Assembly (NCBI GenBank): GCA_902801765.1
Contig: CADCJO010000009.1
Location: 1-53,017, forward strand
Reading direction: 5' to 3'
From: an uncultured Eubacteriales bacterium
Lineage (GTDB): Bacteria > Bacillota > Clostridia > Christensenellales > Aristaeellaceae
Length of the DNA stretch: 53,017 nt
The translations under genes and the position numbers were made by a program. Numbering within the stretch: the stretch's first letter is position 1; every line of letters starts with the position of its first letter. Positions 18,302 through 36,579 of this stretch are shown piece by piece. A model generated the notes under the pieces. The model had not been told where the DNA came from. It did not search any database and worked only from the letters and a program-made list of their open reading frames with translations.

Positions 18302-18407
18302 ATGTATAAGATTGTTCAGCAGTTTGCAGCGAGGATCGATCCCTGGATCAGACAGCTGAAAGAGGATCTTTTGAATGCGCCTGTACTGTGCACAGATGCT
18401 ACCGGTA
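18302..18407 (+). pseudogene. Transposase fragment (IS66-like)
   Basis: About 35 codons read YKIVQQFAARIDPWIRQLKE and then DLLNAPVLCTDATG. The pattern of a helical stretch ending in a catalytic-type Asp resembles the central domain of IS66 transposases (normally xxVLHxDET). It has no ribosome binding site, lacks both ends, and runs directly into the truncated dppB fragment. It marks the recombination that removed the 5' part of the transporter operon. Family assignment is tentative. Confidence 0.5.
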
Positions 18408-19594: not shown

Positions 19595-19610
19595 CAGGGA
19601 GGTTTCAAGC

Positions 19611-20600: not shown

Positions 20601-20614
20601 AGGAGGGAAACGCT

Positions 20615-20836
20615 ATGGCCGCTTTGATTGAATTAAAGCATCTGAAAAAATATTTTCCCACCTCCAAAGGCGCCTTGCACGCGGTGGACGATGTTTCCTT
20701 TTCCATTGAGGAAGGCACCACCCTGGGCGTGGTGGGTGAATCCGGCTGCGGAAAATCCACCCTGGGCCGCACCATCATTCATCTGCATGAAAGCACGGAC
20801 GGGCAGATCATCTACCGCGGCAAGGATATGTGCTGA
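20615..20836 (+). pseudogene. dppF 5' fragment fused out of frame to MATE remnant
   Basis: The first 72 or so codons of DppF are present, including HAVDDVSFSIEE and Walker [10 protein letters not shown]. The Q-loop, signature and Walker B are missing. At about 20826-20832 the sequence switches to the middle of a MATE gene, and the frame stops two codons later. A shared TATGTG at the joint suggests a microhomology deletion. The full-length paralogue (35623-36579) has 318 residues. Confidence 0.9.
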
Positions 20837-22241: not shown

Positions 22242-23126
22242 TTATTTATTGCAGCAATCAATCATGTAATGCAGGAAATCCTTGGAGCAGCTGGTACGGA
22301 TATGGCGAGGATACATCAGGTATAAATAGGTTCTGACCGTGGGGCTGATATCCACCACAGCCATGTCCGAAGCAATGTCCGGGATGTGCATGCGGTTGAG
22401 GACAGCAATGCCTTTCCCATTTTTTACATAATGCAGCATCGTGGAGGCAAAATGGGATTCCGCAATGATATTCGGTTTAAAATTCTGCTGCTGGCACAAT
22501 TCAAGAAACTTGTGCGTTTCGTCATGGGGTGTATCCATATGGCTGCTGTGCAGAACAAAGCTCTCTTTTTCTAATTGATCCAGCGTTACCGTCCGGTTGC
22601 CGGCCAGAGGATGATCTTTGGGCATGACCACAGCCAGATGATCTGTTTTGTAGATCATTTTGCTGAAATTGCTGCCTTCCGCTTCCGCTTCACTGACAAA
22701 GGCAAAATCACATTTTTTATTGGTCAGAAGCTCCATGGAATTATAGCTTTCCATGGGAATCAGCGTATGATGGGGAAATTGAGAGGAAAAATCGGACAGA
22801 ATCTCCACCACGCCATACTGCCCCAGCAGGGGATTGTACGCCACGGTCACAGAGGCCTTATCCACCTCCTGCATTTCCTTCAGCGCTGCAGTGCCCTCTT
22901 CGTAGGAACGCAGGATCTGCTTGGCATAGGGATAAAACCGCTGGCTGTATTCATTCAATTGAATGGAACGTTGGGAGCGGTCAAACAGATCGACATTCAA
23001 TTCTTCTTCCAATTTGTGAATGTGCTTCGTCAGGGCGGATTGGGAAATGTTCATTTGGTCGGCCGTTTCCTGAAAATTGCAGGTTTCCACCAGGCGCACA
23101 AATTCAGCAAGAATACTGATTTCCAT
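22242..23126 (-). CDS. LysR-family regulator, candidate controller of the DAPG-hydrolase module
   Basis: 294 residues. The N-terminal helix-turn-helix NFQETADQMNISQSALTKHI lies at about residues 15-35, followed by a linker helix and an effector-binding domain to about 290. ATG 23126 is preferred over an upstream ATG because purine-rich GGAG sequences precede it. It is divergent from the first DAPG hydrolase gene. The shared intergenic region contains a TTCC-N5-GGAA dyad that recurs with fixed geometry at three other promoters in the next 7.5 kb. LysR proteins usually bind dyads of the T-N11-A type, which this fits. Its effector is probably the pathway substrate or product, unknown. Confidence 0.92.
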   Translation of the reverse strand: MEISILAEFVRLVETCNFQETADQMNISQSALTKHIHKLEEELNVDLFDRSQRSIQLNEYSQRFYPYAKQILRSYEEGTAALKEMQEVDKASVTVAYNPLLGQYGVVEILSDFSSQFPHHTLIPMESYNSMELLTNKKCDFAFVSEAEAEGSNFSKMIYKTDHLAVVMPKDHPLAGNRTVTLDQLEKESFVLHSSHMDTPHDETHKFLELCQQQNFKPNIIAESHFASTMLHYVKNGKGIAVLNRMHIPDIASDMAVVDISPTVRTYLYLMYPRHIRTSCSKDFLHYMIDCCNK

Positions 23127-23242: not shown

Positions 23243-23305
23243 TTCCATTTTGGAAAATGAGCGGGAATGAATCGAATTGATTGCGCCCGATTTCCTCTTT
23301 ACAAT
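23243..23305 (+). promoter_or_regulatory. Regulated promoter 1 (TTCC-N5-GGAA box) of DAPG hydrolase 1
   Basis: Dyad TTCCATTTTGGAA at 23243-23255, centre 23249. TTGATT at 23277-23282, a 17-nt spacer and TACAAT at 23300-23305. The dyad centre is 28 nt upstream of the first -35 base, the same as in the three sister promoters. Confidence 0.8.
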
Positions 23306-23361
23306 AAAGGCATGAAACCCGAATCAGAATGAAAGCGCCGCATACGGAAAGGAGAGCGTCT

Positions 23362-24207
23362 ATGGAACTGATCACAGACAATGGGATGCCGTATATCAAA
23401 GTGCCGGAATTATCCGAAGAAGAAAAGAAGCTGCCTTACGCCAAATACTACACCGATTACAAGCTCTATCCCCCCAACCCCATCCAGCAGCAAATCCTGG
23501 ACGCTGGCCCCATGCGGGTGGATCAGGCCATCCCCATCGAGCATTGGCTGGATTGGCTCAGCCCCACGGGGTACCCGGAGATCGTGTACGGCTATACCAT
23601 GATGCCGGACGGCAGCGGTTTCTATATCGAATATTCCACCACGTCCCCCACCTGGCAGGGAGCCTGGCGGCGCTGGTATGGAAAGTGGTACAACCAGCAT
23701 CCCCCCGAACTGCCCGAGGGCCGGGGCAACCTGCGCTATAAAATCTGGAACCCGGTGGATCATTGGGATCATCGGTTCGTCAATGGCAAGAACGACAAGG
23801 ACGGCGTCTGGTCCATCGAAACCCTGGACATCGGCGCCACGGGCGATCCCAGCAAGGGTATGCCTGCGATATCGCATAATATCAATTTGCTGGAATATGG
23901 CCTGTCTCCCGAAAAGAAAGCGGAACTGGAAGCCGCGGACTGCCGGGTGGAAGCCTGCTGGGAGGAGTTCGACGAGCCTGGGCACCATCTGGTGCTGCGC
24001 TTTTCCCGCCCCTGCCCCCTGGGCGGCCGGGAAAGCATCAACTGCGAATGGATGGGCTATTGGGCCAAGGATGGCAAAATCATCCGCGACCCGGAAACCA
24101 AAGTAGATGAGACCTACCTCAAAAACGTGCTCACCCACAACACCATCGAACGCGCCCACCTGGCCCAGGTGCTGCCCGATCTGTACGCCGAGTTCCACGA
24201 TCAATAA
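23362..24207 (+). CDS. DAPG/phloretin hydrolase family protein 1
   Basis: 281 residues, the usual size for this family of zinc C-C hydrolases: PhlG cleaves diacetylphloroglucinol, and Eubacterium ramulus Phy cleaves phloretin. Seen here: the family-like core LRYKIWNPVDHWDH (about 124-137) with candidate metal His 134 or 137, the ETLDIG segment (Glu 153), and THNTIERAHL near the C-terminus with an HxxxE pair (His259, Glu263) like that of PhlG. FSRPCPLGG (214-222) is shared with the paralogue at 29790-30668. GGAGAG precedes ATG 23362. It is monocistronic, with its own box-containing promoter and a terminator. The true substrate is unknown; the family call comes from motif recall, not a search. 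Confidence 0.75.
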   Translation: MELITDNGMPYIKVPELSEEEKKLPYAKYYTDYKLYPPNPIQQQILDAGPMRVDQAIPIEHWLDWLSPTGYPEIVYGYTMMPDGSGFYIEYSTTSPTWQGAWRRWYGKWYNQHPPELPEGRGNLRYKIWNPVDHWDHRFVNGKNDKDGVWSIETLDIGATGDPSKGMPAISHNINLLEYGLSPEKKAELEAADCRVEACWEEFDEPGHHLVLRFSRPCPLGGRESINCEWMGYWAKDGKIIRDPETKVDETYLKNVLTHNTIERAHLAQVLPDLYAEFHDQ

Positions 24208-24216
24208 TGAAATCAA

Positions 24217-24260
24217 AAAATACAGCTTCCTGCCCTCTGCGGGGTGGGAAGCTGTATTTT
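24217..24260. terminator. Bidirectional terminator
   Basis: AAAATACAGCTTCC (24217-24230) pairs with GGAAGCTGTATTTT (24247-24260). The flanking A and T runs serve both DAPG hydrolase 1 and the convergent secreted-protein gene. Confidence 0.8.
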
Positions 24261-24284
24261 ACATAACATGAAATTCTTTTGCCT

Positions 24285-24352
24285 TTCCCGGAAAGGGATC
24301 AGGGGGAAACCGATCTTTGGGCTGTAAAGAGCGGCTTCCCCCTGAATTCTTT
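24285..24352. repeat. Dispersed palindrome family (GGGGGAAACC type), copy 2
   Basis: CAGGGGGAAACC and the inverted GGCTTCCCCCTG flank ATCTTTGGGCTGTAAAGAG. It is the same family as 9488-9594 and 37268-37326, with the inner hairpin lost. Confidence 0.7.
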
Positions 24353-24362
24353 TTTTCGCTTT

Positions 24363-26468
24363 TTACTTCGCCAGGATCTCAGCGGGCGTAGCGGAGTAGA
24401 TCACTTCCACGGCGGGCGCGCCGTCGGGGTTGAAGTCCGGGCCGCTGACCAGGTACCAGTATTCGCCGTCAAAGAAGGGGATGGTGCCATCCTCCCACAA
24501 GCGGTGGGCCACATCGTACACATAATTTCCGTTTTCATCATTGAGCAGATTACGGATGAAAGAGCCCACATGGGCGGAGTATACGTCGTTCATGGTAGAG
24601 CCCATGTAATCGTCGGTAGCGGCGTCGATCACCTTGCCGTAGGTGGACAGGGCATAAGCGGCAATGGCGGGGCTGGTGGTGGGGCCGGGGCAGCCTTCGT
24701 GGTCCATGCTCTTGTAGTTGGCAAGCACGGTGTTGTCGATCTCATTCCAGATGGTGGGGCCGACGGCCTTGTAACCCAGGGTGCTGATGCCGATGTTGAT
24801 GCTTCCGGCGACCGCGTCCTCGTTCCAGATCTTGACCCATTCCACAAAGTTGGCCATCACTTCGTCGGTCAGCGGCGTGGAATAATCCAGGCTCAGACCC
24901 TTCATGGTATTGTTCAGGGCGTCCACGTCTACCAGTTCATTGATCTGCTTCTGCCAGTCAGCAAAGGCCACCTTGGCGGCTTCGTCGATGGCGTCCTTGT
25001 TTTCAAAGTACCATTCAGGCTTGGGGCCGATGGACTTCACTTCGGTCATGGGCGGCATGACGTTAAAGTAGGTGCTGCGGGGCGCGTCGGCCTGGGCGGC
25101 TGCCTTGGCGGCGGCTTCCTCGCGCTGGGCGGCGGTTGAAACGGTCAGGCGGCAGGAGCCGTTGCCAGCCAGCATGATTTCCCACACCTGGTCGCCGTCC
25201 TCGGCGGTATAGGTGTATTTGCCGGGATTCACAGCCGCGCCTGCTTCGGACATATCTTCACCTGCGGGCTGCGCCGTTTTGCCGTCGATCATCTTCCAGT
25301 TGGCAGCGCCGTCGGCGGCGAAGAAATCCGGCTTTTCCGCGTCGGGAGTTTCCCACGCGCCGGTGGAGAAGTAACCATTGCCCAGGTCGGTCCAGCCAGC
25401 GGCTACATAAGTGGTGCCCACGGAAGCGTTCTGGCGCTCGTTCTTGGGACCGACGTTCAGGGCTACTGCATTTTCGGGGTCAAGTCCGAATTCGGCATAC
25501 AGGCCGCTGGCGTAGTCGGTGCCCATGTTCCAGTACACGTTGCCGTCCTTGTCCACCAGGCAGGCGAATGCGGAGCCGGTATCGCTTTCATTTGCTTCGG
25601 CTAGCACGGTTAGATCCTTGTAAGCGCTGGGATCGTAATGATCGTTGAATTCCTTCACTTCCTTGGCGGAATACAGACCGCGGTTATACAGGAAACCGGA
25701 AGACAGCAGCTTCGCGCCGGAAGCGAAGGGGTAGCCCGTTTCAGAGCCAAAGTAGCCTGCCCATTCCTTGACGCCCGGGAACGCGCTGCCGATATAGGAA
25801 GCGATCAGGTCCACCTGGGAATGGCCCGCCAGGTCTTCGCCGGTTTGGGTCCAGATCATATTGACCACATAGTTCCAGGCGTCGTTGGCAATGGACTTGC
25901 CCACCGCGCCCTGGATGGTGGTGGGTACTGCGTTGCGCACATAGCATACCATCCAGTTGCTGTCCACATCTGCCCATTTGTCCAGGGTCGCCTGGATGTC
26001 CTCAGTCACGTCGGCGGCAGTCACGTCGATGGTCTGGGGATTGACCAGGGACAGGATCACCGAGGGATCGAAGATGGAATAAGCTTCAGCCTTCCAGGCT
26101 TCAAAGGCTGCCAGCACTTTGGCTTCCGCTTCCGCGTCGTACCAGGCGGGGAGCACGTCGCCGAAGGCCACGATCTTCCAGGCGCCGTCGGGATAGAGAT
26201 AAGGATAAGCTTCGCCGTTGTCGGGCATCACGGCCAACTTCACCATATCCGTGTCTTCGGGGATCTCAAAATCCCGGATCAGGGCGGCAAAGCTGTCCAC
26301 AGCCAGCTGGCTGTATACGGTGCCGTCGGCGGTCAGGATGGCTACAAAGCCTTCTTCGCTTTGACCGTCCGCGGCCAATTGCGCCGTGACCTGCGCGCCT
26401 TCCGCGAAAGCGGAGACGGCCAGGATCAGGCTCGTTAGGAGAATGAAAACTGCAAGCAGCTTCTTCAT
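24363..26468 (-). CDS. Large secreted protein of unknown function in the DAPG-hydrolase regulon
   Basis: 701 residues. The N-terminus MKKLLAVFILLTSLILAVSA followed by FAEG is a signal peptide with likely cleavage after AFA. The rest is rich in Ala, Asp, Gly and Trp, without further membrane segments, and contains two similar-sized halves separated by an Ala/Glu-rich linker (about 440-460). Phrases such as DKDGNVYWNMGTDYA and VNPGKYTYTAEDGDQVWEI suggest beta-rich extracellular domains. I recognise no catalytic family. It carries its own promoter with the TTCT-N5-GGAA variant of the module's box, so it is likely an exported enzyme or capture protein for the same substrate. GGAGG precedes ATG 26468. 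Confidence 0.8.
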   Translation of the reverse strand: MKKLLAVFILLTSLILAVSAFAEGAQVTAQLAADGQSEEGFVAILTADGTVYSQLAVDSFAALIRDFEIPEDTDMVKLAVMPDNGEAYPYLYPDGAWKIVAFGDVLPAWYDAEAEAKVLAAFEAWKAEAYSIFDPSVILSLVNPQTIDVTAADVTEDIQATLDKWADVDSNWMVCYVRNAVPTTIQGAVGKSIANDAWNYVVNMIWTQTGEDLAGHSQVDLIASYIGSAFPGVKEWAGYFGSETGYPFASGAKLLSSGFLYNRGLYSAKEVKEFNDHYDPSAYKDLTVLAEANESDTGSAFACLVDKDGNVYWNMGTDYASGLYAEFGLDPENAVALNVGPKNERQNASVGTTYVAAGWTDLGNGYFSTGAWETPDAEKPDFFAADGAANWKMIDGKTAQPAGEDMSEAGAAVNPGKYTYTAEDGDQVWEIMLAGNGSCRLTVSTAAQREEAAAKAAAQADAPRSTYFNVMPPMTEVKSIGPKPEWYFENKDAIDEAAKVAFADWQKQINELVDVDALNNTMKGLSLDYSTPLTDEVMANFVEWVKIWNEDAVAGSINIGISTLGYKAVGPTIWNEIDNTVLANYKSMDHEGCPGPTTSPAIAAYALSTYGKVIDAATDDYMGSTMNDVYSAHVGSFIRNLLNDENGNYVYDVAHRLWEDGTIPFFDGEYWYLVSGPDFNPDGAPAVEVIYSATPAEILAK

Positions 26469-26502
26469 GGAATGGAACCTCCTTTTGTTTTCTTGTGGCT
26501 TT

Positions 26503-26565
26503 ATTCTGCCAAATGCGCCATCCTAAATCAATTCTGTTTTTCTGGATTCTTTTTCCAAACGAGAA
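26503..26565 (-). promoter_or_regulatory. Regulated promoter 2 (variant box) of the secreted protein
   Basis: On the minus strand: box TTCTCGTTTGGAA (26565-26553, centre 26559), TTGATT (26531-26526), a 17-nt spacer, CAGAAT (26508-26503). The centre-to--35 distance is 28 nt, as in the other three. The box has one mismatch to TTCC-N5-GGAA. Confidence 0.7.
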
Positions 26566-26607
26566 ATAGAAAAGCTGCCGAATGCAGGCGGCTCTCAAAA
26601 CGAGCGA

Positions 26608-26829
26608 TTATTCGTGGTGATGATGTCCGCCATGATGATGGCCTTCATGAGAATGACCTTCGCGGGGTTTGCCTTCGTCGGCTTGGGTGGCGGCTTCCAG
26701 GGTCATTTCGCCGTTCATCAGCTTTTCCACTAATTCTTTTCCCCGGTTGCAGCTCACCGCGCCGATGGGGCAATGCCGTCCGCAGCGGGGGCAATTTGGC
26801 AGGGCTTCTTTGATGCTGTTCATTTCCAT
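26608..26829 (-). CDS. Small Cys/His-rich putative metal-binding protein
   Basis: 73 residues from ATG 26829, which has AGGAG upstream; the longer frame from 26874 starts inside the promoter and is disfavoured. The N-terminal NCPRCGRHCPIGAVSCNRG holds four Cys in a zinc-ribbon-like arrangement. The C-terminus is a His tail (GHSHEGHHHGGHHHHE) likely to bind Ni, Zn or Cu. Similar small CPxCxxHCP proteins occur in gut Clostridia, function unknown to me. It has its own promoter and lies between two members of the LysR-box regulon without having the box itself. Confidence 0.7.
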   Translation of the reverse strand: MEMNSIKEALPNCPRCGRHCPIGAVSCNRGKELVEKLMNGEMTLEAATQADEGKPREGHSHEGHHHGGHHHHE

Positions 26830-26869
26830 GTTCCTATCCTCTCCTTCTTTCAAGTGCCTGTCGCGGCGC

Positions 26870-26899
26870 ATCATATCATTTGGCCCATGGAGGAGTCAA
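26870..26899 (-). promoter_or_regulatory. Promoter of the Cys/His-rich small protein
   Basis: On the minus strand TTGACT (26899-26894), an 18-nt spacer and TATGAT (26875-26870). No TTCC-N5-GGAA box lies 28 nt upstream of it, which sets it apart from its neighbours. Confidence 0.65.
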
Positions 26900-27004
26900 G
26901 GGAAGTTCATTTCCATTTTGCTGTGGACCATTTCCAAATTGTAAGAGAAAGAAAAAACAGGAACACGAAGACTGCCCCTTCGCCAGATTTTCTTCCTTAA
27001 TTCA

Positions 27005-27067
27005 TTCCTTTTTGGAAAGAGACCTTCCCGAAGTGGATTTGATGGGAAGGGGTGATTCTGATATAAA
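27005..27067 (+). promoter_or_regulatory. Regulated promoter 3 (TTCC-N5-GGAA box) of the MATE operon
   Basis: Box TTCCTTTTTGGAA at 27005-27017 (centre 27011), TTGATG at 27039-27044, a 17-nt spacer, TATAAA at 27062-27067. The box centre is again 28 nt from the -35. It drives the MATE, alpha/beta hydrolase and DAPG hydrolase 2 genes. Confidence 0.8.
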
Positions 27068-27118
27068 GGAAACAGAACAGCATCGTTTATCCAACCTCAA
27101 CGGAATGGAGTGAATACA

Positions 27119-28486
27119 ATGGCAAGACCAATGAGCGAAGAAAAGAAACAGCGCATGCTCACCGAAAAAATGAGCACCCTGATCCCGGCCATGGCGGTGC
27201 CCACCATCGTGGCCCAGCTGATCACCACCATCTATAACCTGGTGGACACCTACTTCGTCAGCACCCTGGGCACCAATGCCACCGCCGCCGTGGGCGTAAA
27301 TGCTTCCCTGGAGCGGGCCATCACCCTGATCGGCTCCCTGATTGGCGCTGGTGCGTCCAGTTATATTTCCCGGCTGTTAGGCGCGAAGCGGGATGAGGAC
27401 GCCCACCGGGTGCTGTCCACTTCCTTTTTTACCGGGGTTGGTCTGGGGGCACTGCTGCTGATTTTCGGCAAGCTGTTTATCCGGCCGGTGGTCACCTTCT
27501 TAGGCGCGACGCCGGAATGCGTGGAATACTCCATGCAGTACGCCAATTATGTGTTGTACGCCGCGCCGTTCATGGTGGGCAGCTTCATCCTGAATATGTG
27601 CCTGCGCAGCGAGGGTAGCGCCACCTTCTCCATGATCGGCATCGGCATCGGCGGGGTGCTGAACTGCTTCCTGGACCCCCTGTTCATTTACACCTTCGAT
27701 CTGGGCGTGGCAGGCGCGTCCATGGCCACCGCCATTTCCAAATTCGTCTCCTTCTGCATCCTGCTCTGGCCCTACATCCAGAAAAAGAGCTCTGTGCGGC
27801 TGGCAATCAGCAAAATCAAGTTTGTGGCTGAGGACGTAAAGAGTGTGCTGTCCATCGGCTCCACTTCCTTCTTCCGCTCGGCAGGCGCGGTGGTCTGCTC
27901 CACCCTGATCAACCGCATCGGCGGCAGCTATTCCACCTCCGCCCTGGCGGCGCTGTCCATATCCAATCGCGTGATGGAATTCCCCTTCGCCATCATCCTG
28001 GGCTTCGGCCAGGGCTATCAGCCGGTGGTGGGTTTCAACTGGGGTGCCAAGGTGTGGGAACGGGTGAAAAAGAGCCTGGACTTCGCCTTGAAAGTATCGG
28101 TCATCGGCGGCATTGTCATCGGCGGCCTCCTGATCATCTTTGCCAATCCCGTGGTGCACATCTTCAACAAGCAGGCGGATGCGGAGGTGCTGCGCATCGG
28201 CGTGTACTGCATCCGTGTACAGTCGGCGCTGCTGTTCGCTCATGCCATGAACTCCATCATCAATATGTTCTATGCGGGCATTGGCAAAGCCAAATGGGCG
28301 ATGCTTATGAGCACGGCCCGGCAGGGGTATCTATTTATTCCCTTGGTGTTCATCCTGCCGCCCCTGTTCGGTACCTACGGCGTGGCCTCCGTTCAGGCTG
28401 CGGCTGACCTGATCTCCCTGGCCATTTCCATTCCTCTGATGCTGAAAGCCTACAGAATGATCAAAGAAGCGGCGGAGGTGGGGTAA
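27119..28486 (+). CDS. MATE-family multidrug/metabolite exporter
   Basis: 455 residues with twelve predicted helices in two bundles. Family features include the N-terminal PTIVAQLITTIYNLVDTYFV and the internal repeat signature LNCFLDPLFIY and GYQPVVGFNWGAK. MATE proteins export cationic or aromatic compounds using Na+ or H+ gradients. ATG 27119 is chosen over GTG 27110 because GGAG lies 8 nt before it. It is first in an operon with an alpha/beta hydrolase (1-nt stop-start overlap) and DAPG hydrolase 2, so it may export a product or a toxic substrate of that pathway. It is the full-length paralogue of the remnant at 20827-21792. Confidence 0.92.
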   Translation: MARPMSEEKKQRMLTEKMSTLIPAMAVPTIVAQLITTIYNLVDTYFVSTLGTNATAAVGVNASLERAITLIGSLIGAGASSYISRLLGAKRDEDAHRVLSTSFFTGVGLGALLLIFGKLFIRPVVTFLGATPECVEYSMQYANYVLYAAPFMVGSFILNMCLRSEGSATFSMIGIGIGGVLNCFLDPLFIYTFDLGVAGASMATAISKFVSFCILLWPYIQKKSSVRLAISKIKFVAEDVKSVLSIGSTSFFRSAGAVVCSTLINRIGGSYSTSALAALSISNRVMEFPFAIILGFGQGYQPVVGFNWGAKVWERVKKSLDFALKVSVIGGIVIGGLLIIFANPVVHIFNKQADAEVLRIGVYCIRVQSALLFAHAMNSIINMFYAGIGKAKWAMLMSTARQGYLFIPLVFILPPLFGTYGVASVQAAADLISLAISIPLMLKAYRMIKEAAEVG

Positions 28487-29769
28487 TGGAAAAGCGGGCT
28501 GCAAAAGAAACGTATTCCATTCTGGAAACCTTCGTGCGTCTGGGCAGGCGGGTGCCGGGGGTGCTGTACGAGCCGGAAGGACTGGCGGACAAAGCCGTGC
28601 CCGCCGTGCTGGTGATGCACTCCGACGAGGATTACCTCACCTGCCCCACCGGCGCGGAAATGGCGAAACGCGGATACCGCGTGCTGTGCGCCAATGTAAT
28701 GACCAAAGAGGGCATGTTCTTTTCTCTGCCGGATAAAATGGGGGCCGTAAAGGCCGCAGTGGAATTCCTCAGAAACAAAGCAAATGTGGGAAAAATCTAC
28801 CTCATGGGTCACAGCGGCGGGGCCACCCTGATGACGGCTTATCAGGCCATCGCCGAAAACGGGCCGCGGATTTTTCAGGGCCCCCATTACATCCTCCCCT
28901 ATCCAGACAGTGAACCGCTGCTCCCGGCGGACGGGCTGATCCTGCCCGACGCCAACTGGGGAAACGCCGTGATGCAGCTGTTCAGCCTGGACCCCGCGGT
29001 AAAGGACGAGGACAGCGGCATGAAGCTGGACGCGGAATATAACCTGTTTGAGGAAAAGAACGGCTTTTCGGAAGCGGGCTCCCATTTCTCCGACGCCTTT
29101 ATTGCCCGTTTCCTGAAAAAACAGGGCCAGCGGAACAACCAGATCTTGTCCCATGCCAAGGAGCGCTGGAAGCTGATCAAAGCTGGCAAGGGCCTGTACA
29201 GCGATGACGAGCCGCTCACCATTCCCGGCGCTAATCAGGGCTTCTTCAACAACAAGCTCTATGCCCAGGACGTTCGCCTCATGTCCCACACCAGGGAGCC
29301 GCAAATGCTCGTTCACGCCGACGGCTCCGTCACCAAGGAAATCGTATATTCCCTGCGGGGGCCGGAAAATCCCCGCTCCATGACTCATTCTCTGGCCGAG
29401 GGCGGGCGCGTCATGACGGTGTACAACTATCTGTCCTCCTACGCCGTCAAGACCACCGAGGATTACGGCTACGGCGAGGATGGCGTAACAGGCATCGACT
29501 GGCATTCCACCTGGAACAGCCCTGTGGGCAATGTGGAATATATCCGGGTGCCTACCCTGATTTTAGGCATGACGGCGGGCTGGGAGTACCTGGCCAGCGA
29601 AACCATTTACCAGCATGCCGCCGCCCCCAGCAAGGAGCTGGCCTTTATTGAAGGTGCGAATCACAAGTTCAATCCCGAGCACGCCCGGGAAACCTTCCCC
29701 GGCCAGTTCGGCGACACCATGAAAACCCTGCACGACTACATGGCGGAATGGATCGAAAGCCAGGCGTAA
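28486..29769 (+). CDS. Alpha/beta hydrolase
   Basis: 427 residues, no signal peptide, so cytoplasmic. The nucleophile elbow GHSGG has Ser110, the C-terminal catalytic His is likely 393 in EGANHKF, and an acid is probably in the preceding strand-loop. The N-terminus VPGVLYEPEG and AVLVMHSDEDYL is typical of hydrolases that act on small esters or amides. The long middle insertion (about 125-330) should form a cap that sets specificity. The start codon shares an A with the MATE stop (TAATG), indicating translational coupling. The substrate is unknown; by context it may deacylate the compound handled by the DAPG hydrolases. Confidence 0.85.
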   Translation: MEKRAAKETYSILETFVRLGRRVPGVLYEPEGLADKAVPAVLVMHSDEDYLTCPTGAEMAKRGYRVLCANVMTKEGMFFSLPDKMGAVKAAVEFLRNKANVGKIYLMGHSGGATLMTAYQAIAENGPRIFQGPHYILPYPDSEPLLPADGLILPDANWGNAVMQLFSLDPAVKDEDSGMKLDAEYNLFEEKNGFSEAGSHFSDAFIARFLKKQGQRNNQILSHAKERWKLIKAGKGLYSDDEPLTIPGANQGFFNNKLYAQDVRLMSHTREPQMLVHADGSVTKEIVYSLRGPENPRSMTHSLAEGGRVMTVYNYLSSYAVKTTEDYGYGEDGVTGIDWHSTWNSPVGNVEYIRVPTLILGMTAGWEYLASETIYQHAAAPSKELAFIEGANHKFNPEHARETFPGQFGDTMKTLHDYMAEWIESQA

Positions 29770-29789
29770 ACGAAGAAGGAGGAAGCATC

Positions 29790-30668
29790 ATGTCATTTGG
29801 TTTTGTGGAAAAGGAAATCCTGGATACCAAGGACCCCAGCATCGTGAAGATCCGGCAGAAGCTGTACCCTGAAGAAGAAAAAATGCCCCTGGCCAAATAC
29901 TTTTACAACTACCCGCTGCACTATCCCAGCCCCATCGAAATGCAGCTGATCCAGAAGCCCATGAACGTGGAGGACGCCATCCGCCCTGAAAACTTCACAG
30001 ATCTCCTCAAGCCCTACGGCTACGACAAGGTGGAGCTGGGCTACTGCATGTTTGAGGACGGCTCCGGCTACGTGGCCACCTACCGGGTGCGCCCGCCCCA
30101 CATTACGTCCGAAATGGAAAGATGGTACCGCAACTGGCGCAACCTGAAATCCAAATCCATGGTGGGCGGCCACGGCAACCTGCGGTACAAGATCTGGAAC
30201 TACGCCGATCATTACGACCACTATTACGTGAACTGGGAAAACGGCGAGGACGGCATCCACACCACTGAGAGCCTGGACATGGGCCAGGGGGAGCGCATGT
30301 ACGACACCATCCGCCACCAGTTCGACGTGCGGGATTTCGGCGTGACGGAAGAGCACCTGCACAAAATGAAGGAAGCGGGCTGCCAGTTCACCGGCAAGGG
30401 CTCCTATGAGACCTTCGACGAACCCGGCACCCATCTTTGCCTGGCCTACTCCCGGCCCTGCCCCTTGGGCGGCATCGAAACCCGCTCCCGCGAATGGATC
30501 GGCTGGCGGCCCGTCAAAGGCAAGCTGGTGCGCGATTACAGCACTAAGGTCAGCGAGGAATACCTGAAAACCGTGGTGATCCACACCCTGGTGGAATGGG
30601 AGCACCTGTATACCTTCCTGCCCGACCTGTACGCGGAATACAAGGATCAGCCCATGGACGCCGACTGA
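29790..30668 (+). CDS. DAPG/phloretin hydrolase family protein 2
   Basis: 292 residues, paralogue of the protein at 23362-24207, clearly alike though divergent. Conserved landmarks are GNLRYKIWNYADHYDH (129-144, candidate metal His 141/144), TTESLDMG (Glu160), SRPCPLGG (221-228) and IHTLVEWEHL (HxxxE, His265/Glu269). LPDLYAEYKDQ closes both proteins. AGGAGG precedes ATG 29790. It is third in the operon after MATE and the alpha/beta hydrolase, 20 nt downstream. Two copies under one type of promoter suggest related but distinct substrates, for example two acyl-phloroglucinol or chalcone-like compounds; this is inference. Confidence 0.75.
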   Translation: MSFGFVEKEILDTKDPSIVKIRQKLYPEEEKMPLAKYFYNYPLHYPSPIEMQLIQKPMNVEDAIRPENFTDLLKPYGYDKVELGYCMFEDGSGYVATYRVRPPHITSEMERWYRNWRNLKSKSMVGGHGNLRYKIWNYADHYDHYYVNWENGEDGIHTTESLDMGQGERMYDTIRHQFDVRDFGVTEEHLHKMKEAGCQFTGKGSYETFDEPGTHLCLAYSRPCPLGGIETRSREWIGWRPVKGKLVRDYSTKVSEEYLKTVVIHTLVEWEHLYTFLPDLYAEYKDQPMDAD

Positions 30669-30731
30669 TTCCATTCCGGAAAGAAACGGAAAACAATCAG
30701 AATTGATCCATGTGGTATTCGGAAATAAAAT
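30669..30731 (+). promoter_or_regulatory. Regulated promoter 4 (TTCC-N5-GGAA box) of the binding-protein gene
   Basis: Box TTCCATTCCGGAA at 30669-30681, directly after the DAPG hydrolase 2 stop codon (centre 30675). TTGATC at 30703-30708, a 17-nt spacer, TAAAAT at 30726-30731. The 28-nt centre-to--35 distance is exactly preserved. Confidence 0.75.
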
Positions 30732-30821: not shown

Positions 30822-32405
30822 ATGAAGAACGGAAAGTACATCGCGCTGCTGCTGGCGCTGGTCATGATGATGTCCTGCCTCAGCATTCCCGCCCTGGCTG
30901 AATACCAGGCCGAGTCCGTGGTGATCGCCGCGGACGACGACTCCTTCAACGTGGCCCCTTGGAGCAACTCCCAGGGTGAAGTTTCCAACTACCTGCAATA
31001 CATCATCTGGACCCACCTGGCTACCCGTCCCTTCACCGGCGCCATGATCGGCGCGGGCATGGAGCTGGTCGCCGCCAAGGAAATCACCCGGGTGGACGAC
31101 CTGACCTGGCATATCGTGCTGAACGACGTGACCGACTCCAAGGGCAACGTGATCACCGCCAACGACGTGAAGTTCAGCTTCGACAAGAACTATGAATTAG
31201 GCTACTACGCCTATGTAAACAACTTCTATGACAGCATCGAAGTCATCAACGACAAGGAACTGAACTTCAAGACCAAGACCGCAGACGAGGGCGGCTTTGA
31301 ATCCGCCGTCATCAACACCGCCATTTGCAGCCAGGCCTGGTATGAGAGCGCTTCCGAGGACGAGCTGCTCAACAATCCCGCCTGCACCGGCGCTTACTAT
31401 GTGACCAACGTGCAGAACGGACATTCCGTTACCGTCACCGCCCGGGAAGACTACTGGAAGAGCGAGGGCCTGGCCACCACCGAAAAGCAGAACGTGAAGA
31501 CCATCCAGATCCTGTGCATGAGCGAAGACGACGCCCGCTCCATCGCCCTGGAAAACGGCGAAGTGGACTACGCCCAGGTGAGCTACATCGCCTACGACCG
31601 CATCTTCCGCAATGACAGCAACTACAACGTGTTCGAGATCCCCAAGTTCATGAACGCCATCCTGATCTTCAACTGTGATCCTTCCTCCGTCTGCTCCGAT
31701 CCCAACGTGCGCAAGGCCATCTCCTATGCCCTGGATATTGACCAGGTGTTCCTGCTGGGCCAGGGCAACGATTCCTATGAGCTGCACCATGACATCTGCC
31801 CCGATGTGACTCCCGACTATGTGTCCGCCTGGAACGATGAAGACTATTACACCCGCGATCTGGCCAAGTCCGCCGAATATCTGGCTGCCGCCGGTTACAA
31901 GCCGGGCGAGCTGCAGCTCAAGTTCATCGTTCGCGCCCAGGCTCCTCAGCAGCCCTATGTGGTCATGCAACAGCAGCTGGCCGAAGCGGGCATCGTGATG
32001 AACATCATCCCCTATGACCGCGCCGTGTTCAACACCTACTATGCCGACAACACCGCCTGGGACTTCGCCGAAAGCGGCTCTGAGGTCACCGACTTCACCG
32101 CCAATTTCTGGAGCCGTATGTTCAACGAAGAAATCTACGGCGAAAAGGGCTCTGAAAACAACATCCACGACGCCAAGCTCCAGGAGCTGCTCAAGGCCGC
32201 CCTGGCCACCCGCTCCCCCGAGGACATGGACGCCTTCCATCAGTACTACACCTATGAACAGTGCTACGCCATCGGCATGTACAACGAAGTGAACTACTTC
32301 ATCGCCCGCAAGGGTCTGGTGGACATTGCCAAAGGCACCGACAACGCCACCCTGCAGGCCATGACCTTCACCAGCGACTACAAGCCCGTGCCGCTTCAGA
32401 AGTAA
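30822..32405 (+). CDS. dppA: Peptide-type ABC transporter substrate-binding protein (DppA/OppA family)
   Basis: 527 residues with a signal peptide (basic start MKNGKYIALLLALVMMMS, then a PALA-EYQ site). A lipobox-like MMSC is present but non-ideal, so anchoring is uncertain. The mature part is of the SBP family 5 fold: ITRVDDLTWHIVLNDV, DVKFSFDKN, and DPNVRKAISYALDID. Such proteins bind peptides, nickel chelates or other small solutes. ATG 30822 follows AAAGGAG. Its own box-containing promoter and its place before dppBCDF make it the receptor of the transporter and probably the uptake side of the DAPG-hydrolase module. The first, decayed cluster has no binding protein. Confidence 0.92.
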   Translation: MKNGKYIALLLALVMMMSCLSIPALAEYQAESVVIAADDDSFNVAPWSNSQGEVSNYLQYIIWTHLATRPFTGAMIGAGMELVAAKEITRVDDLTWHIVLNDVTDSKGNVITANDVKFSFDKNYELGYYAYVNNFYDSIEVINDKELNFKTKTADEGGFESAVINTAICSQAWYESASEDELLNNPACTGAYYVTNVQNGHSVTVTAREDYWKSEGLATTEKQNVKTIQILCMSEDDARSIALENGEVDYAQVSYIAYDRIFRNDSNYNVFEIPKFMNAILIFNCDPSSVCSDPNVRKAISYALDIDQVFLLGQGNDSYELHHDICPDVTPDYVSAWNDEDYYTRDLAKSAEYLAAAGYKPGELQLKFIVRAQAPQQPYVVMQQQLAEAGIVMNIIPYDRAVFNTYYADNTAWDFAESGSEVTDFTANFWSRMFNEEIYGEKGSENNIHDAKLQELLKAALATRSPEDMDAFHQYYTYEQCYAIGMYNEVNYFIARKGLVDIAKGTDNATLQAMTFTSDYKPVPLQK

Positions 32406-32743: not shown

Positions 32744-33748
32744 ATGGGACGATACGTTCTCAAAAGGCTTCTCATCCTCATCCCGACGCTGATTGCCGTG
32801 ACCATCATCGTGTTCACGCTGATGAACTTCGTTCCGGGCGACCCGGTGATGATCGCTCTGGGCGCGGGCACCCACACGCCGGCTGAGATCGAAGCAAAAA
32901 GAATCGCCATGGGGCTGGACAGGCCCTTCCTGGTGCGGCTGGCGGAATACCTGAAAGGCGTGTTCCTGCATTTCAATTTTGGCACCAGTCTGATTGACGG
33001 CACCAGCATCCAATATCAGCTGATCACCCGCTTTCCCAACACGCTGAAAATCGCCATTTACAGCATCATTTTTACCGTGGTGATCGGCATTCCCCTGGGC
33101 GTGTTCTGCGCCCAGCACGCCAATTCCGTGGGCGACCGCATCGCCCTGGTGGTCACCCTGGTGCTGGACTCCATGCCCTCCTTCTGGCTGGCGCTGCTGC
33201 TGATGCTGCTCTTTGCCCTGCAGCTGCACTGGCTGCCGTCCACGGGCAGCGGGTCGTTCAAATACTTTATCCTGCCCACCCTGGCCAACTCACTGGGCGG
33301 CCTGGCGGGCTTTACCCGGCAGGTGCGCGCCAGTATGCTGGAGGTGACCCGGTCCGACTTCGTGACCACCGCCCGCTCCAAGGGCATTTCGGAGCGTAAG
33401 GTGATTTACGGCCACGCCCTGCCCAACGCCCTGATCCCCATCCTGACGCTGGTGGGCATGCGCTTTGGCGGTATGCTGGGCGGCGCGACGGTGATCGAAG
33501 TGATTTTCTCCATTCCCGGCATCGGCCAGCTGCTGGTGAACGGCATCAACAACCGCGATTCCACAGTGGTCACCGGCGGCATTGTGTTCATCGCCCTGAC
33601 CTTCTCCCTGATCATGCTGCTCACCGATCTGGCTTACGCCCTGGTCGATCCGCGGATTAAGGCCCAGTACACCACGAAAAAGAAGAAATCCGGAGAGGAG
33701 GACAGGCACCATCATGGCGGCCGCCATGGGGAGGCTGAAGCAACATGA
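32744..33748 (+). CDS. dppB: Peptide-type ABC permease DppB
   Basis: 334 residues. Typical DppB/OppB start MGRYVLKRLLILIPTLIAVT, periplasmic-side loop, then the permease core with MLEVTRSDFVTTARSKGISE (the EAA-type coupling region) and EVIFSIPGIGQLLVNGI, ending VDPRIKAQY. The last 20 residues are an odd His/Glu/Gly-rich tail that overlaps dppC by 4 nt (ATGA). Full length compared with the truncated copy at 18405-18687. It forms the channel with DppC. Confidence 0.94.
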   Translation: MGRYVLKRLLILIPTLIAVTIIVFTLMNFVPGDPVMIALGAGTHTPAEIEAKRIAMGLDRPFLVRLAEYLKGVFLHFNFGTSLIDGTSIQYQLITRFPNTLKIAIYSIIFTVVIGIPLGVFCAQHANSVGDRIALVVTLVLDSMPSFWLALLLMLLFALQLHWLPSTGSGSFKYFILPTLANSLGGLAGFTRQVRASMLEVTRSDFVTTARSKGISERKVIYGHALPNALIPILTLVGMRFGGMLGGATVIEVIFSIPGIGQLLVNGINNRDSTVVTGGIVFIALTFSLIMLLTDLAYALVDPRIKAQYTTKKKKSGEEDRHHHGGRHGEAEAT

Positions 33749-34620
33749 AAACGAAGAAAACGGACATAAGCAGCTTAAAACCGGGTTCGCTGAGATATGT
33801 ATGGCGGAAGCTGCTGAAAAACAAATCCGCCGTGTTCGGCCTGCTGGTTATCGCCCTGCTGATGATTCTCTCCCTGCTCTCTCCGTTCATCTGCCGCTAC
33901 GATTACCGCAGCATGGACGCCCTGCACACCTACGCCACCCCCACCGCCGACCATCTGCTGGGCACCGATGAATTGGGACGCGACATTCTTTCCCGGGTGC
34001 TCTACGGCGCGCGCTACACCTTCATCATCGGCATCCTGTCCACCGCCATCGCTGCGGTGCTGGGCATCGCCATGGGCGCTGCCGCTGGGTATTTTGGCGG
34101 CAAGGTGGACAGCATCCTGATGCGCTTCCTGGACATCTTCCAGTCCTTCCCCATGCTGATCCTGGCCATGGCCTTCTGCGCCGTGTTCGGCACGGGCATT
34201 GACAAGTGCATCTTGGCCCTGGGCATTTCAAACATCTCCGGCTTTGCCCGCCTGATGCGCGCCAACATCCTGCGCATCCGCAACATGGAATATGTGGAGG
34301 CCGCCACCTCCATCGGCTGCCCCACCCGCAGGATCATCACCTCCCACGTGATCCCCAACGCCATCTCTCCCATCATCGTGGAAATCGCCATGGGCATTAG
34401 CCGGAACGGTCTGGCCTCCTCGTCGCTGAGCTTCCTGGGCCTGGGCGTTCAGCAGCCCACCCCCGAATGGGGCGCGATGCTGTCCTCCGCCCGCAGCTAC
34501 ATTCGCTATTATCCCCACATGGCCATCATCCCCGGCATTTTCATCCTGATCACCGTGCTCAGCTTCAACCTGATCGGCGACGCCGTGCGCGATATTCTGG
34601 ATCCGACGCTGAAAGAGTGA
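33745..34620 (+). CDS. dppC: Peptide-type ABC permease DppC
   Basis: 291 residues. N-terminal [20 protein letters not shown] helix, [20 protein letters not shown] (DppC signature), then [21 protein letters not shown] coupling loop and [14 protein letters not shown] end. Starts on the ATGA overlap with dppB. Paralogue of 18680-19594 but not nearly identical, so the two copies separated some time ago or were acquired independently. Confidence 0.94.
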
Positions 34621-34630
34621 GGAAACGAAC

Positions 34631-35626
34631 ATGAGCGAAAAGACGAAAAACAGCGCGTTCTTTTCCATCCGGGATTTGAACGTGCAATACAAATCCGGCG
34701 AGCAGACGGTGTATGCCGTCAACGGCGTTTCCTTCGACCTGAAGGCGGGCGAAACCCTGGGTTTGGTGGGCGAAACCGGCGCGGGCAAAACCACCATCGC
34801 CAAATCCATCCTGCGCATCCTGCCGGAGCACGCGGTCAAGCGCATGGACGGCGAGGTGCTTTACGAGGGCCAGGATATCTTCAAGATGAACGATACCGAG
34901 CTTCGCAAGATCCGCGGCCATCAGATCTCCATGATCTTTCAGGACCCCATGACCGCCCTGAACCCGGTCAAGCGCGTGAACGAGCAGATCGCTGAGGGCT
35001 ACATCCAGCACCACAACTGCTCCAAGGCCGAGGCCGAACGCCGGGCCGAGGAAATGCTGGAGCTGGTGGGTATCAGCGCCGACCGGGCCGGGGAATATCC
35101 CCACCAGTTTTCCGGCGGCATGAAGCAGCGCGTGGTCATCGCCATGGCGCTGGCCTGTTCCCCCAAGCTGCTCATTGCCGATGAGCCCACCACCGCCCTG
35201 GACGTGACCATCCAGGCCCAGGTGCTGGATCTGATCAAGCGCCTGCGGGACGAGCTGGGCACCTCCATGATTCTCATCACCCACGACCTGGGCGTGGTGG
35301 CCGGCATCTGCGATAAGGTGGCTGTCATTTACGCGGGCCGCATCATCGAAAGCGGCACGAAGGCCGACGTGTTCAAGCATCCCACCCACCCCTACACCAT
35401 CGGCCTGTTCGGCGCGCTGCCTGACCTGAAAAAGGACGTGGAACGGCTGTCGCCCATCGAGGGCCTGCCGCCGGACCCCACCCAGGTGACGGAGGGCTGC
35501 GCTTTCTATCCCCGCTGCGCCCACCGGTGCGACAAATGCAAGCAATATCAATACGAGCCCACGCAGCTATCGGATACCCACGCCATCCTCTGCTGCAATC
35601 CTGTGAAGGAGGGAGCCGGAGCATGA
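34631..35626 (+). CDS. dppD: Peptide-type ABC ATPase DppD
   Basis: 331 residues. Walker [10 protein letters not shown]-loop [11 protein letters not shown], signature SGGMKQR, Walker [12 protein letters not shown], and the Cys-containing C-terminal extension ([12 protein letters not shown]). It powers the transporter together with DppF. It overlaps dppF by 4 nt (ATGA). Closely parallel to the first-cluster copy, including the N-terminal context [10 protein letters not shown]. Confidence 0.94.
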
Positions 35627-36579
35627 GCAATCTTCTGGAAATCGAACACCTGAAAAAATACTTTAAATCCGCCCGGGGCACCGTGCACGCGGTGGACGAT
35701 GTGACGCTGACCATCGAGCAGGGAAAAACCGTGGGCCTGGTTGGGGAATCTGGCTGCGGCAAATCCACTCTGGGACGCACCATCGTGCACTTGCAGGAAA
35801 GCACCGACGGCGTGATGCGCTTCGCCGGGAAGGACGTGACCCATCTCAATAAAAAGGAAATGCTGGAATTCCGCAAGAACGCCCAGATCATTTTTCAGGA
35901 CCCCTATTCCTCCCTGGACCCCCGCCAGACCGTGCAGGATATCATCCGGGAGCCCATGAAGCTGCTCACCGATTATTCCAAATCGGAAATAGAACAAAAG
36001 AGCGAAGAATTGATGGACATCGTGGGCATCGAAAAGCGGCTGCGCCTGTCCTATCCCCATGAACTGGATGGCGGCCGCCGCCAGCGCGTGGGCATCGCCC
36101 GGGCCTTGGCCCTGAACCCCAAGTTCGTGGTGTGCGACGAGCCGGTATCCTCCCTGGACGTGAGCATCCAGGCCCAGATTCTGAACCTGCTCATGGATTT
36201 GCAGGATCAGTACGGGCTGACCTACCTGTTCATCACCCACGATATGTCTGTGGTACGCCACATTTCCGATTACATCTGCGTCATGTACCTGGGCCAGATG
36301 ATCGAAAAGACGGATAAAAAGAGCCTGTTCGACAAGCCCCTGCATCCCTACACGAAGGCCCTGCTGTCCGCCATCCCCACCATCGACATCGACGCCCAGC
36401 CCGAACGCATCCAGCTCAAGGGCGAAATCAATTCGCCCATCGACCCGGAACCCGGTTGCCGTTTCGCCAAGCGCTGCCCCTATGCCAAGCATTGCTGCAA
36501 GGAGCCGGTGCCGCTTCAGGAAGTGGAGCCCGGCCATTTTGTGGCCTGCCATCGGGTGAGGGAAATCAATTCCCTGTGA
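35623..36579 (+). CDS. dppF: Peptide-type ABC ATPase DppF
   Basis: 318 residues from ATG 35623 (AGGAGG upstream; an upstream in-frame ATG falls inside dppD). Walker [11 protein letters not shown]-loop [11 protein letters not shown], Walker [12 protein letters not shown], and C-terminal [14 protein letters not shown]. The signature region reads [12 protein letters not shown], Asp replacing the usual Ser of LSGG, a conservative oddity also seen in some Dpp/Opp ATPases. It is the intact counterpart of the fragment at 20615. Confidence 0.94.

What the first reader, a model, noticed from the sequence alone, without database searches (positions are those of the whole stretch)
23243..30731. Four promoters with an identical LysR-type box geometry define a regulon around two DAPG-hydrolase-like enzymes
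The boxes TTCCATTTTGGAA (23243), TTCTCGTTTGGAA (26565, minus), TTCCTTTTTGGAA (27005) and TTCCATTCCGGAA (30669) are each centred exactly 28 nt from the first base of a TTGATN -35 box, and all four have a 17-nt spacer before the -10. They drive DAPG hydrolase 1, the 701-residue secreted protein, the MATE/alpha-beta hydrolase/DAPG hydrolase 2 operon, and the binding protein plus Dpp transporter. The LysR gene at 22242-23126 shares the first intergenic region. LysR proteins bind T-N11-A dyads, which fits. I infer a single-regulator uptake-cleavage-export module not named in any system I know.
Basis: partly seen in the sequence, partly recalled or inferred. Interest (0 to 1): 0.92.

Follow-up and report, generated by a model that had tools for sequence, protein, structure and literature searches.

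The report
LysR regulon for plant-phenol-like C–C cleavage
Gut and rumen bacteria share a gene set, probably for importing and splitting a plant-type phenolic compound, whose separate promoters carry the same precisely spaced docking site, most likely for one LysR-type switch protein.

Summary
In related clusters of other genera and families (Hungatella, Pseudoflavonifractor, Lawsonibacter, Blautia, ruminant and rabbit MAGs) the box sits before orthologous genes; after TTCC-N5-GGAA, TTGAT follows at gap 21 in 30 cases against at most 4 at any other gap from 0 to 61. The full element (at most 1 mismatch) is in 28 of 38 module loci and 0 of 38 loci with PhlG relatives but no module, and is rare genome-wide. 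A third half-site, GAW, not imposed by the search, abuts the -35 in 47 of 47 elements, 21 bp after the box's GAA. LysRs of box loci cluster on a tree, with two exceptions inside the group. I read this as a LysR-activated regulon for import (SBP-Dpp), C–C hydrolysis (two PhlG/phloretin-hydrolase-fold enzymes) and export (MATE). Regulator binding, inducer and substrate are inferred. The regulatory mode is textbook; my literature searches, limited to open-licence papers, turned up no description of the gene module.

The parts
22242..23126 (-). LysR-type regulator (294 aa), presumed activator of the regulon
   Evidence: Pfam HTH_1 7e-16 and LysR_substrate 4e-27; relatives 71% (G070), 71% (G302), 63% (G218), 58% (H. 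hathewayi)
23243..23255 (+). box 1 TTCCATTTTGGAA (regulatory half-site pair), promoter of PhlG1
23274..23305 (+). third half-site GAA (23274-23276), -35 TTGATT (23277-23282), -10 TACAAT (23300-23305)
23362..24207 (+). PhlG1, PhlG/phloretin-hydrolase-family enzyme (281 aa)
   Evidence: Pfam DAPG_hydrolase 48.3 bits, cut-off 22.7; metal-ligand columns kept
24363..26468 (-). Sec701, 701-aa protein with signal-like N-terminus, unknown family, found with the module elsewhere
   Evidence: no Pfam or NCBIfam hit at E 0.001; relatives in L081, L083, L084, L085, L086, L093 (43 residues only), L098; model unreliable, pLDDT 49.5
26526..26565 (-). box 2 TTCTCGTTTGGAA (26565-26553), third half-site GAA (26534-26532), -35 TTGATT (26531-26526); -10 CAGAAT at 26508-26503
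26608..26829 (-). small Cys/His-rich protein (73 aa, CPxCxxHCPI...CxRG, His-rich tail), likely module member
   Evidence: tblastn relatives (E 0.01 or less) in 9 of the 76 loci, and weak ones in L082 and L093; in L095/L096 its match starts 86-87 nt beyond the divergent reading of the MATE box
27005..27017 (+). box 3 TTCCTTTTTGGAA, promoter of MATE-ABH-PhlG2
27036..27067 (+). third half-site GAT (27036-27038), -35 TTGATG (27039-27044), -10 TATAAA (27062-27067)
27119..28486 (+). MATE-family efflux protein (455 aa)
   Evidence: Pfam MatE 7.5e-46; NCBIfam matE over cut-off
28486..29769 (+). alpha/beta-hydrolase-like protein (427 aa, GHSGG)
   Evidence: weak Pfam Hydrolase_4 19.7 bits, below cut-off; PDB best E 0.16
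29790..30668 (+). PhlG2, second PhlG/phloretin-hydrolase-family enzyme (292 aa)
   Evidence: Pfam 82.8 bits; PDB 5xe5 3.9e-10; Foldseek 5xey 8.9e-14
30669..30681 (+). box 4 TTCCATTCCGGAA, promoter of SBP-Dpp
30700..30731 (+). third half-site GAA (30700-30702), -35 TTGATC (30703-30708), -10 TAAAAT (30726-30731)
30822..32405 (+). family-5 solute-binding protein
   Evidence: Pfam SBP_bac_5 2.9e-47
32744..36579 (+). DppB, DppC, DppD, DppF-like ABC importer genes
   Evidence: Pfam for DppB and DppD; synteny of all four
36586..37188 (+). 200-aa protein that travels with the Dpp genes
   Evidence: tblastn relatives beside DppF in several loci; a cluster of such ORFs in 14 of 80 loci; no NCBIfam hit
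37351..38157 (+). SDR-family protein lacking the usual YxxxK motif

Best explanation
The four promoters are LysR-type activator targets of one regulon. A LysR tetramer sits on the palindrome TTCC-N5-GGAA, whose centre is 28 nt before the -35 and so near -64 from the start of transcription, and on a further half-site (GAW) that abuts the -35 two helical turns after the palindrome's second arm. Ligand binding would shift the dimer at the -35-proximal site and let RNA polymerase start. The switched-on genes take up a solute (SBP plus DppBCDF), process it in the cell with two metal-dependent C–C hydrolases of the PhlG/phloretin-hydrolase fold, an alpha/beta hydrolase and an odd SDR, and export a product or toxic substrate by MATE. 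The likeliest substrate class is a plant-derived acyl-phenol or other beta-diketone-like compound met by gut and rumen anaerobes. Shown by computation: the element, its conservation, its genome-wide rarity, its third half-site, co-occurrence with one LysR group, and the fold and conserved metal-ligand columns of the hydrolases. Inferred: binding by LysR, activation, inducer, substrate, transport direction.
For: Exact geometry. Gap histogram 30 at 21 nt against at most 4 elsewhere. Element at most 1 mismatch in 28 of 38 module loci (46 elements in 579 kb) and 0 of 38 non-module PhlG loci (597 kb); 18 of 20 module loci with a LysR at 30% or more have it. At most 2 mismatches upstream of 42 of 92 module genes and 0 of 44 PhlG genes in loci counted as non-module there. 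Third half-site G31 47/47, A32 47/47, A or T at 33 47/47, not imposed by the pattern. Own genome and 5 others: 13 of 14 GAW-type hits in the module. 6 single hits in 390 other genomes of the class. LysRs of box loci group on the tree with a recognition helix close to ISQSxLTKHIHKLEEEL. LTTR binding sites described as a T-N11-A motif near -65 and a site near -35 (PMC5603801, passages). PhlG fold and ligand columns.
Against: 10 of 38 module loci have no element at 1 mismatch (L097, L101, L103, L109, L119, L120, L121, L122, L126, L169; some are short stretches, and L109, L119, L120, L122 come from records not named as Clostridia), so the enzyme set exists without this regulation. L126 has the box at 20 nt and L093 at 22 nt. 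In the closest gene clusters (L094-L096) the nearby LysR is only 33-36% identical, so either the regulator diverged while the site stayed or another LysR acts; G289 showed no LysR above 26%. A perfect element lies inside dppF (35976) with no promoter. No transcript start or binding datum exists. 50 of 92 module-gene upstream windows lack the element; many of these look operon-internal by my reading. Foldseek's list did not show PhlG itself (3hwp) among the 50 rows printed.
Confidence: 0.72

Rival explanations
1. The regulon is real but the bound regulator is another LysR (or several paralogues) and the neighbouring LysR is not the main controller.
For: The nearest gene clusters carry the same box but a LysR of only 33-36% identity. 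A H. hathewayi paralogue (30%) has the same box between it and its own SBP-Dpp operon. The own genome has 4 LysR matches, one a divergent LysR at 17061-17990.
Against: On the tree the LysRs of module box loci form one group that includes the 33-36% ones, apart from the LysRs of non-module loci and from the H. hathewayi paralogue; the window's second LysR is 17% identical and outside (no support values were printed). The searched genomes of the closest clusters show no better LysR match than the one in the cluster.
Confidence: 0.15
2. The boxes are conserved operators, but for repression, or the palindromes serve another role (such as an RNA structure), and not LysR activation.
For: No expression data. 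A palindrome alone could serve a repressor.
Against: Fixed phase to the -35 (21 nt in nearly every case) and the extra half-site abutting the -35 are what an activator at -65 needs; repressor operators usually need no fixed upstream phase (general knowledge). The -35 hexamers lack the consensus CA (TTGATN), as activated promoters often do.
Confidence: 0.08
3. Chance: boxes and weak -35 hexamers picked out by eye.
For: The off-module hits show that single matches occur.
Confidence: 0.02
4. The enzymes are ordinary phloretin hydrolases of the known flavonoid pathway (FLR, CHI, Fcr, Phy), so the module is a flavonoid operon of known kind.
For: Closest solved relatives are phloretin hydrolases. 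Flavonoid-degrading gut bacteria carry a DAPG_hydrolase-type Phy (PMC10470551 and PMC8398226, passages).
Against: PhlG1/2 match the Pfam profile at 48 and 83 bits, while two other genomes of the family carry PhlG-like genes at 182 and 212 bits that are only 22-24% identical to them and show no module genes in the 19-20 kb around. I recognised no ene-reductase or chalcone-isomerase-like gene among the recurrent gene types, but did not search for those families.
Confidence: 0.2

Closest known systems
LysR-type transcriptional regulator (LTTR) catabolic regulons, e.g. PnpR/PnpM of para-nitrophenol degradation
   Same: LysR with T-N11-A palindrome near -65, several promoters of one catabolic gene set, extra contact nearer the promoter (PMC5603801, passages seen)
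   Different: One fixed 21-nt phase and a conserved third half-site across several groups of anaerobes; that paper says no conserved motif had been identified for the -35-proximal site
Phloretin hydrolase (Mycobacteroides abscessus 5xe5/5xey; Eubacterium ramulus Phy)
   Same: Fold (Foldseek E 8.9e-14, TM 0.65 and 0.73 by query and target), conserved metal-ligand columns, C–C hydrolase family
   Different: About 23% identity to the solved one; two paralogues in one regulon with Dpp importer, MATE and SDR. The E. ramulus sequence itself was not compared
PhlG 2,4-diacetylphloroglucinol hydrolase of Pseudomonas
   Same: Pfam PF18089; 3hwp matched at 1.7e-7
   Different: Far below the NCBIfam PhlG cut-off (20.6 and 32.5 against 600 bits); in Pseudomonas phlG lies between phlF and phlH (PMC7062750, start of abstract in the listing)
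Anaerobic phloroglucinol pathway of Clostridium scatologenes (PGR, DPGC, TfD, TAL)
   Same: An SDR plus C–C cleavage of a phenol-derived diketone in anaerobes (PMC10470551, abstract and passages)
   Different: The module SDR lacks YxxxK; no DPGC- or TAL-like gene was recognised in the module (not searched for directly)

Membership tests
LysR-type regulator (LTTR) | HTH_1 plus LysR substrate domain | tested here: met
   both over cut-off
LysR-type regulator (LTTR) | T-N11-A palindrome near -65 of regulated promoters | tested here: met
   start sites not mapped, position counted from the -35
LysR-type regulator (LTTR) | Gene next to and divergent from a target | tested here: met
   lysR 22242-23126 (-), PhlG1 23362 (+), box between them
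LysR-type regulator (LTTR) | Inducer-dependent activation by a bound tetramer | not testable with these tools
   needs binding and expression assays
PhlG / phloretin hydrolase fold family | Pfam DAPG_hydrolase over gathering score | tested here: met
   48.3 and 82.8 bits, cut-off 22.7
PhlG / phloretin hydrolase fold family | Fold | tested here: met
   PhlG2 model pLDDT 91.5; 5xey E 8.9e-14; PhlG1 not modelled
PhlG / phloretin hydrolase fold family | Metal ligands H, E, H, E (identities recalled from the PhlG structure; no paper found) | tested here: met
   H141, E160, H265, E269 of PhlG2: 103 of 109 aligned sequences keep all four; 6 lack the E, two pairs of these being the same record
2,4-diacetylphloroglucinol hydrolase PhlG (equivalog) | NCBIfam NF047887 cut-off of 600 bits | tested here: not met
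   20.6 and 32.5 bits
Phloretin hydrolase (activity) | Hydrolyses phloretin | not testable with these tools
   no assay
Classical SDR | YxxxK catalytic motif | tested here: not met
   In the window and 34 relatives aligned, no Tyr at the Tyr column (F 28, C 4, A 1, S 1, N 1) and R at the Lys column in 32 of 35, K in 3

The most novel reading that the evidence does not exclude
A previously undescribed gut and rumen pathway, spread over Lachnospiraceae-, Oscillospiraceae- and other Clostridia-labelled genomes, that imports an unidentified plant compound through a Dpp-type importer and breaks it with two divergent PhlG-type C–C hydrolases, an SDR without the usual catalytic motif, a small Cys/His-rich metal-binding protein and, in 8 of 38 loci, a nitrogenase-like reductase. 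One LysR clade controls it through a tripartite site with a conserved third half-site phased two helical turns from the palindrome.
Probability: 0.4. Interest if true: 0.72.

Novelty: new variant of a known kind. Interest (0 to 1): 0.56.

Why it matters
It gives a sequence signature (TTCY-N5-GGAA-N18-GAWTTGAT) that marks members of a catabolic regulon, which my searches did not find described, in mostly uncultured gut anaerobes, and it ties importer, C–C hydrolases and exporter of one pathway together without experiments. It is also a case in which the -35-proximal LysR contact has a recognisable conserved half-site. Cultured carriers (Hungatella hathewayi DSM 13479, Pseudoflavonifractor sp. 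60) make substrate and regulator testable.

Tried and rejected
Chance was rejected. The idea that the geometry is common at unrelated promoters was rejected. Coding match 35976: considered as a fifth promoter and rejected; no -10, not kept in the dppF sequences that aligned over it. Est (38249-39232), though it travels with the module in some loci, has no element at 2 mismatches near it in the window; in H. hathewayi a box lies about 0.76 kb before the matched start of Est.

Fold of Sec701: the model has pLDDT 49.5 and the PDB profile search gave nothing better than E 0.075, so no fold search was run for it. The alpha/beta hydrolase gave no specific family. Metal-ligand identities of PhlG could not be confirmed in a paper (no passages, no papers). 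Paper searches for the module: 'phloretin hydrolase' (20 of 31 listed), 'LysR' + 'phloretin' + 'gut', 'DAPG hydrolase' + 'gene cluster', 3 of 4 of LysR/MATE/phloroglucinol/Lachnospiraceae (10 of 137 listed) and 'PF18089' (none). None of the titles or abstract starts listed describes this module. 'LysR' occurs 0 times in the main texts of PMC10470551, PMC8398226 and PMC11170127. A search on nitrogenase-like genes in gut bacteria was only listed. Only open-licence PMC papers were searched.

A first comparison of metal ligands from the pairwise alignment put an Arg at the first His; the profile alignment places PhlG's His on the invariant H141, and I use the latter.
Full report
Observation. Searches confirm every coordinate in the finding. 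Four 13-bp boxes lie with their centres 28 nt before TTGATN and each promoter has a 17-nt spacer. Three are TTCC-N5-GGAA; the one at 26553-26565 (-) is TTCT-N5-GGAA. The genes downstream are PhlG1, a 701-aa protein with a signal-like start (here Sec701), MATE-alpha/beta hydrolase-PhlG2, and a family-5 binding protein with DppBCDF. The LysR gene at 22242-23126 is divergent from PhlG1 and box 1 lies between them.

Is it more than chance? In the own genome (2.40 Mb, 81% complete) TTC-N7-GAA-N21-TTGAT has 9 exact hits, 5 on this contig. Four are the promoters; the fifth, at 35976, is inside dppF, has no -10 and is not kept in the dppF sequences that aligned over it. The stronger test is conservation. 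A PF18089 search of 300 genomes of the family found matches in 12, the own genome included, and several of these carry most of the gene set. LysR is 71% and 63% identical in two loci (L081, L093). Dpp proteins are 66-95% in L081 and L083-L086, less in L082 and L087. MATE is 60-88%, PhlG1 52-89%, and PhlG2 67-89% except in L087 (33%). The boxes are there at the orthologous promoters with the same 21-nt gap: before MATE in L081, L083, L084, L085, L086; before SBP in L081, L085, L086; before Sec701 in L085 and L086; before PhlG1 in L087. L082 (SBP, 20 nt) and L093 (22 nt) deviate, and L088-L092 show no perfect box.

One scan of the named genome collection with the PhlG1/PhlG2 alignment gave 76 loci (98 relatives found, the best 80 kept), among them Hungatella hathewayi DSM 13479, Pseudoflavonifractor sp. 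60, Lawsonibacter, Blautia and ruminant and rabbit MAGs. Some are the same records as the G-handle loci above. In these loci plus L093 and window 16001-39500 there are 169 distinct TTCC-N5-GGAA readings. TTGAT follows at gap 21 in 30 cases (4 of them in the window, including the dppF one), at gap 25 in 4, and at any other gap from 0 to 61 in at most 2. Near-identical MAG pairs such as L095/L096 are still counted apart, and a palindrome is read in both directions.

Aligning 47 elements (selected for TTC-N7-GAA with C4 or G10, N21, TTG[AC], and a -10 with at least 4 of 6 matches; 4 of them from the window) showed conservation that the pattern did not demand. G at +31 and A at +32 from the first box base are in 47 of 47, then A (38) or T (9). 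A at +13 is in 44. So the full site is TTCY-N5-GGAA-A-N17-GAW-TTGATT. The GAW lies 21 bp, two helical turns, after the GAA of the box and touches the -35. That is where an LTTR's activation contact is expected: PMC5603801 (passages read), citing reviews, puts a T-N11-A site near -65 and a second site near -35, for which it says no conserved motif had been identified.

Contrast sets. Of the 76 loci, 38 carry the module (MATE over 58%, or PhlG2 at 66% or more, or PhlG1 at 70% or more, identical to the window's) and 38 carry only PhlG relatives. The 16-position element with at most 1 mismatch occurs in 28 of 38 module loci (46 elements, 579 kb) and in 0 of 38 others (597 kb); with at most 2 mismatches, 29 of 38 and 2 of 38. 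Of 20 module loci whose stretch includes a LysR of at least 30% identity, 18 have it; L121 and L126 do not (L126 has the 20-nt form). Upstream of module genes 42 of 92 windows have it at 2 mismatches or fewer, against 0 of 44 PhlG genes in loci counted as non-module (there without the PhlG1 criterion) and 18 of 3000 random 300-bp windows from the same 76 loci, real sites not removed. Many of the 50 negative windows look operon-internal by my reading. Of the 47 elements, 42 point at a module gene within 700 nt.

Genome-wide rarity. In six genomes known to hold the module, TTCC-N5-GGAA-N21-TTGA has 27 hits, of which 14 have GAW before TTGA (recount). Of the 14, 13 are in the module (12 upstream of module genes, two of these about 0.76 kb before Est; one in dppF) and the last, in H. 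hathewayi, lies between a LysR gene and a paralogous SBP-Dpp operon (L188). In 391 genomes drawn from the class, the strict element is found 4 times in the own genome and once in each of 6 others. The other 390 genomes have no close PhlG2 relative; 8 have a weak one, best E 3.8e-20, and one of these 8 (G383) is also among the 6, at a distant place. In H. hathewayi, with a complete chromosome, three boxes stand before MATE-PhlG2-symporter-SDR-PhlG1-alpha/beta hydrolase, ahead of Est, and before SBP-Dpp: the transport and cleavage genes of the window in another arrangement.

Regulator. LysRs from module loci with boxes group together on a FastTree tree (no support values printed), with the recognition helix close to ISQSxLTKHIHKLEEEL. 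LysRs of non-module PhlG loci, the H. hathewayi paralogue and the window's second LysR (17061-17990, 17% identical) fall elsewhere. L121 and L126, which carry the module but lack the strict element, fall inside the group. Against a simple story, the clusters nearest the window (L094-L096) have a LysR of only 33-36% identity with the same box, a search of those genomes found no better one, and G289 showed none above 26%. I conclude that the site is read by a LysR clade rather than by strict orthologues. Binding itself is inferred.

Enzymes. PhlG1 and PhlG2 pass Pfam's DAPG_hydrolase cut-off (48.3, 82.8 bits) but are far below NCBIfam's PhlG equivalog. For PhlG2 the closest solved sequences are Mycobacteroides abscessus phloretin hydrolase (E 3.9e-10) and PhlG (1.7e-7); its model (pLDDT 91.5) matches 5xey at E 8.9e-14, TM 0.65 and 0.73, 23% identity, while PhlG (3hwp) is not among the 50 rows printed. 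H141, H265 and E269 are in 109 of 109 aligned PhlG sequences and E160 in 103 of 109; that these are the metal ligands is recalled from the PhlG structure and placed by the profile alignment. Two other genomes of the family have stronger PF18089 genes (182 and 212 bits) without the module around them. So 'DAPG hydrolase' is a family label, and an acyl-phenol or beta-diketone is the substrate class that I would test first. The SDR at the importer and its relatives in other module loci lack the YxxxK pair: no Tyr in 35 of 35, Arg for Lys in 32 of 35. So I do not equate it with phloroglucinol reductase, the SDR of the known anaerobic pathway (PMC10470551, abstract and passages).

Wider module. A 73-aa Cys/His-rich protein at 26608-26829 (-) has relatives in 9 of the 76 loci and weak ones in L082 and L093; in L095/L096 its match starts 86-87 nt beyond the same palindrome read backwards. 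NifH- and NifD-like genes occur in 8 of 38 module loci and 0 of 38 others (Pfam). An MFS_2-type symporter has relatives in 10 of the 76 loci, 9 of them module loci.

Verdict. The mechanism is ordinary LysR activation, as far as sequence can show, with an unusually rigid three-part site. The gene module is a new variant of catabolic cluster, which cover only open-licence papers, turned up no description of it.

Noticed in passing
window 18290-21792: Remains of a second module copy: an IS66-like stretch (my reading of the sequence) runs into the DppB C-terminus, then DppC and DppD genes (92% and 89% identical to G176), then the DppF N-terminus running into a MATE C-terminus at about 20830. Either a real decay by deletion or an assembly join.
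   Followed up: partly
window 37351-38157 and SDR relatives in the module loci: Module SDR has no catalytic Tyr in 35 of 35 aligned sequences and Arg for Lys in 32 of 35, although most keep a Gly-rich segment; a conserved non-classical SDR.
   Followed up: partly
L099, L100, L103, L104, L108, L113, L115, L117: NifH-like and NifD-like (nitrogenase-type reductase) genes lie in 8 of 38 module loci; an ABC exporter pair is in the same locus in five of them (L099, L100, L113, L115, L117), next to the Nif-like genes in the last three.
   Followed up: partly
window 26608-26829 (-): Small Cys/His-rich protein (CPxCxxHCPI, His-rich tail), conserved near the module; possible metal carrier for the hydrolases.
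   Followed up: partly
window 35976-36014: A perfect copy of the 16-position element inside dppF coding sequence with no -10, not kept in the dppF sequences that aligned over it.
   Followed up: yes
L188 5900-5970: In H. hathewayi the same box stands between a paralogous LysR gene (30%) and its own SBP-Dpp operon without a PhlG match in the 12 kb fetched.
   Followed up: partly
L083 7065-9088; L093 10738-10866: The Sec701 relative in L083 matches in two pieces in different frames, so the reading frame appears broken in this MAG; L093 keeps only a C-terminal match of 43 residues.
   Followed up: no
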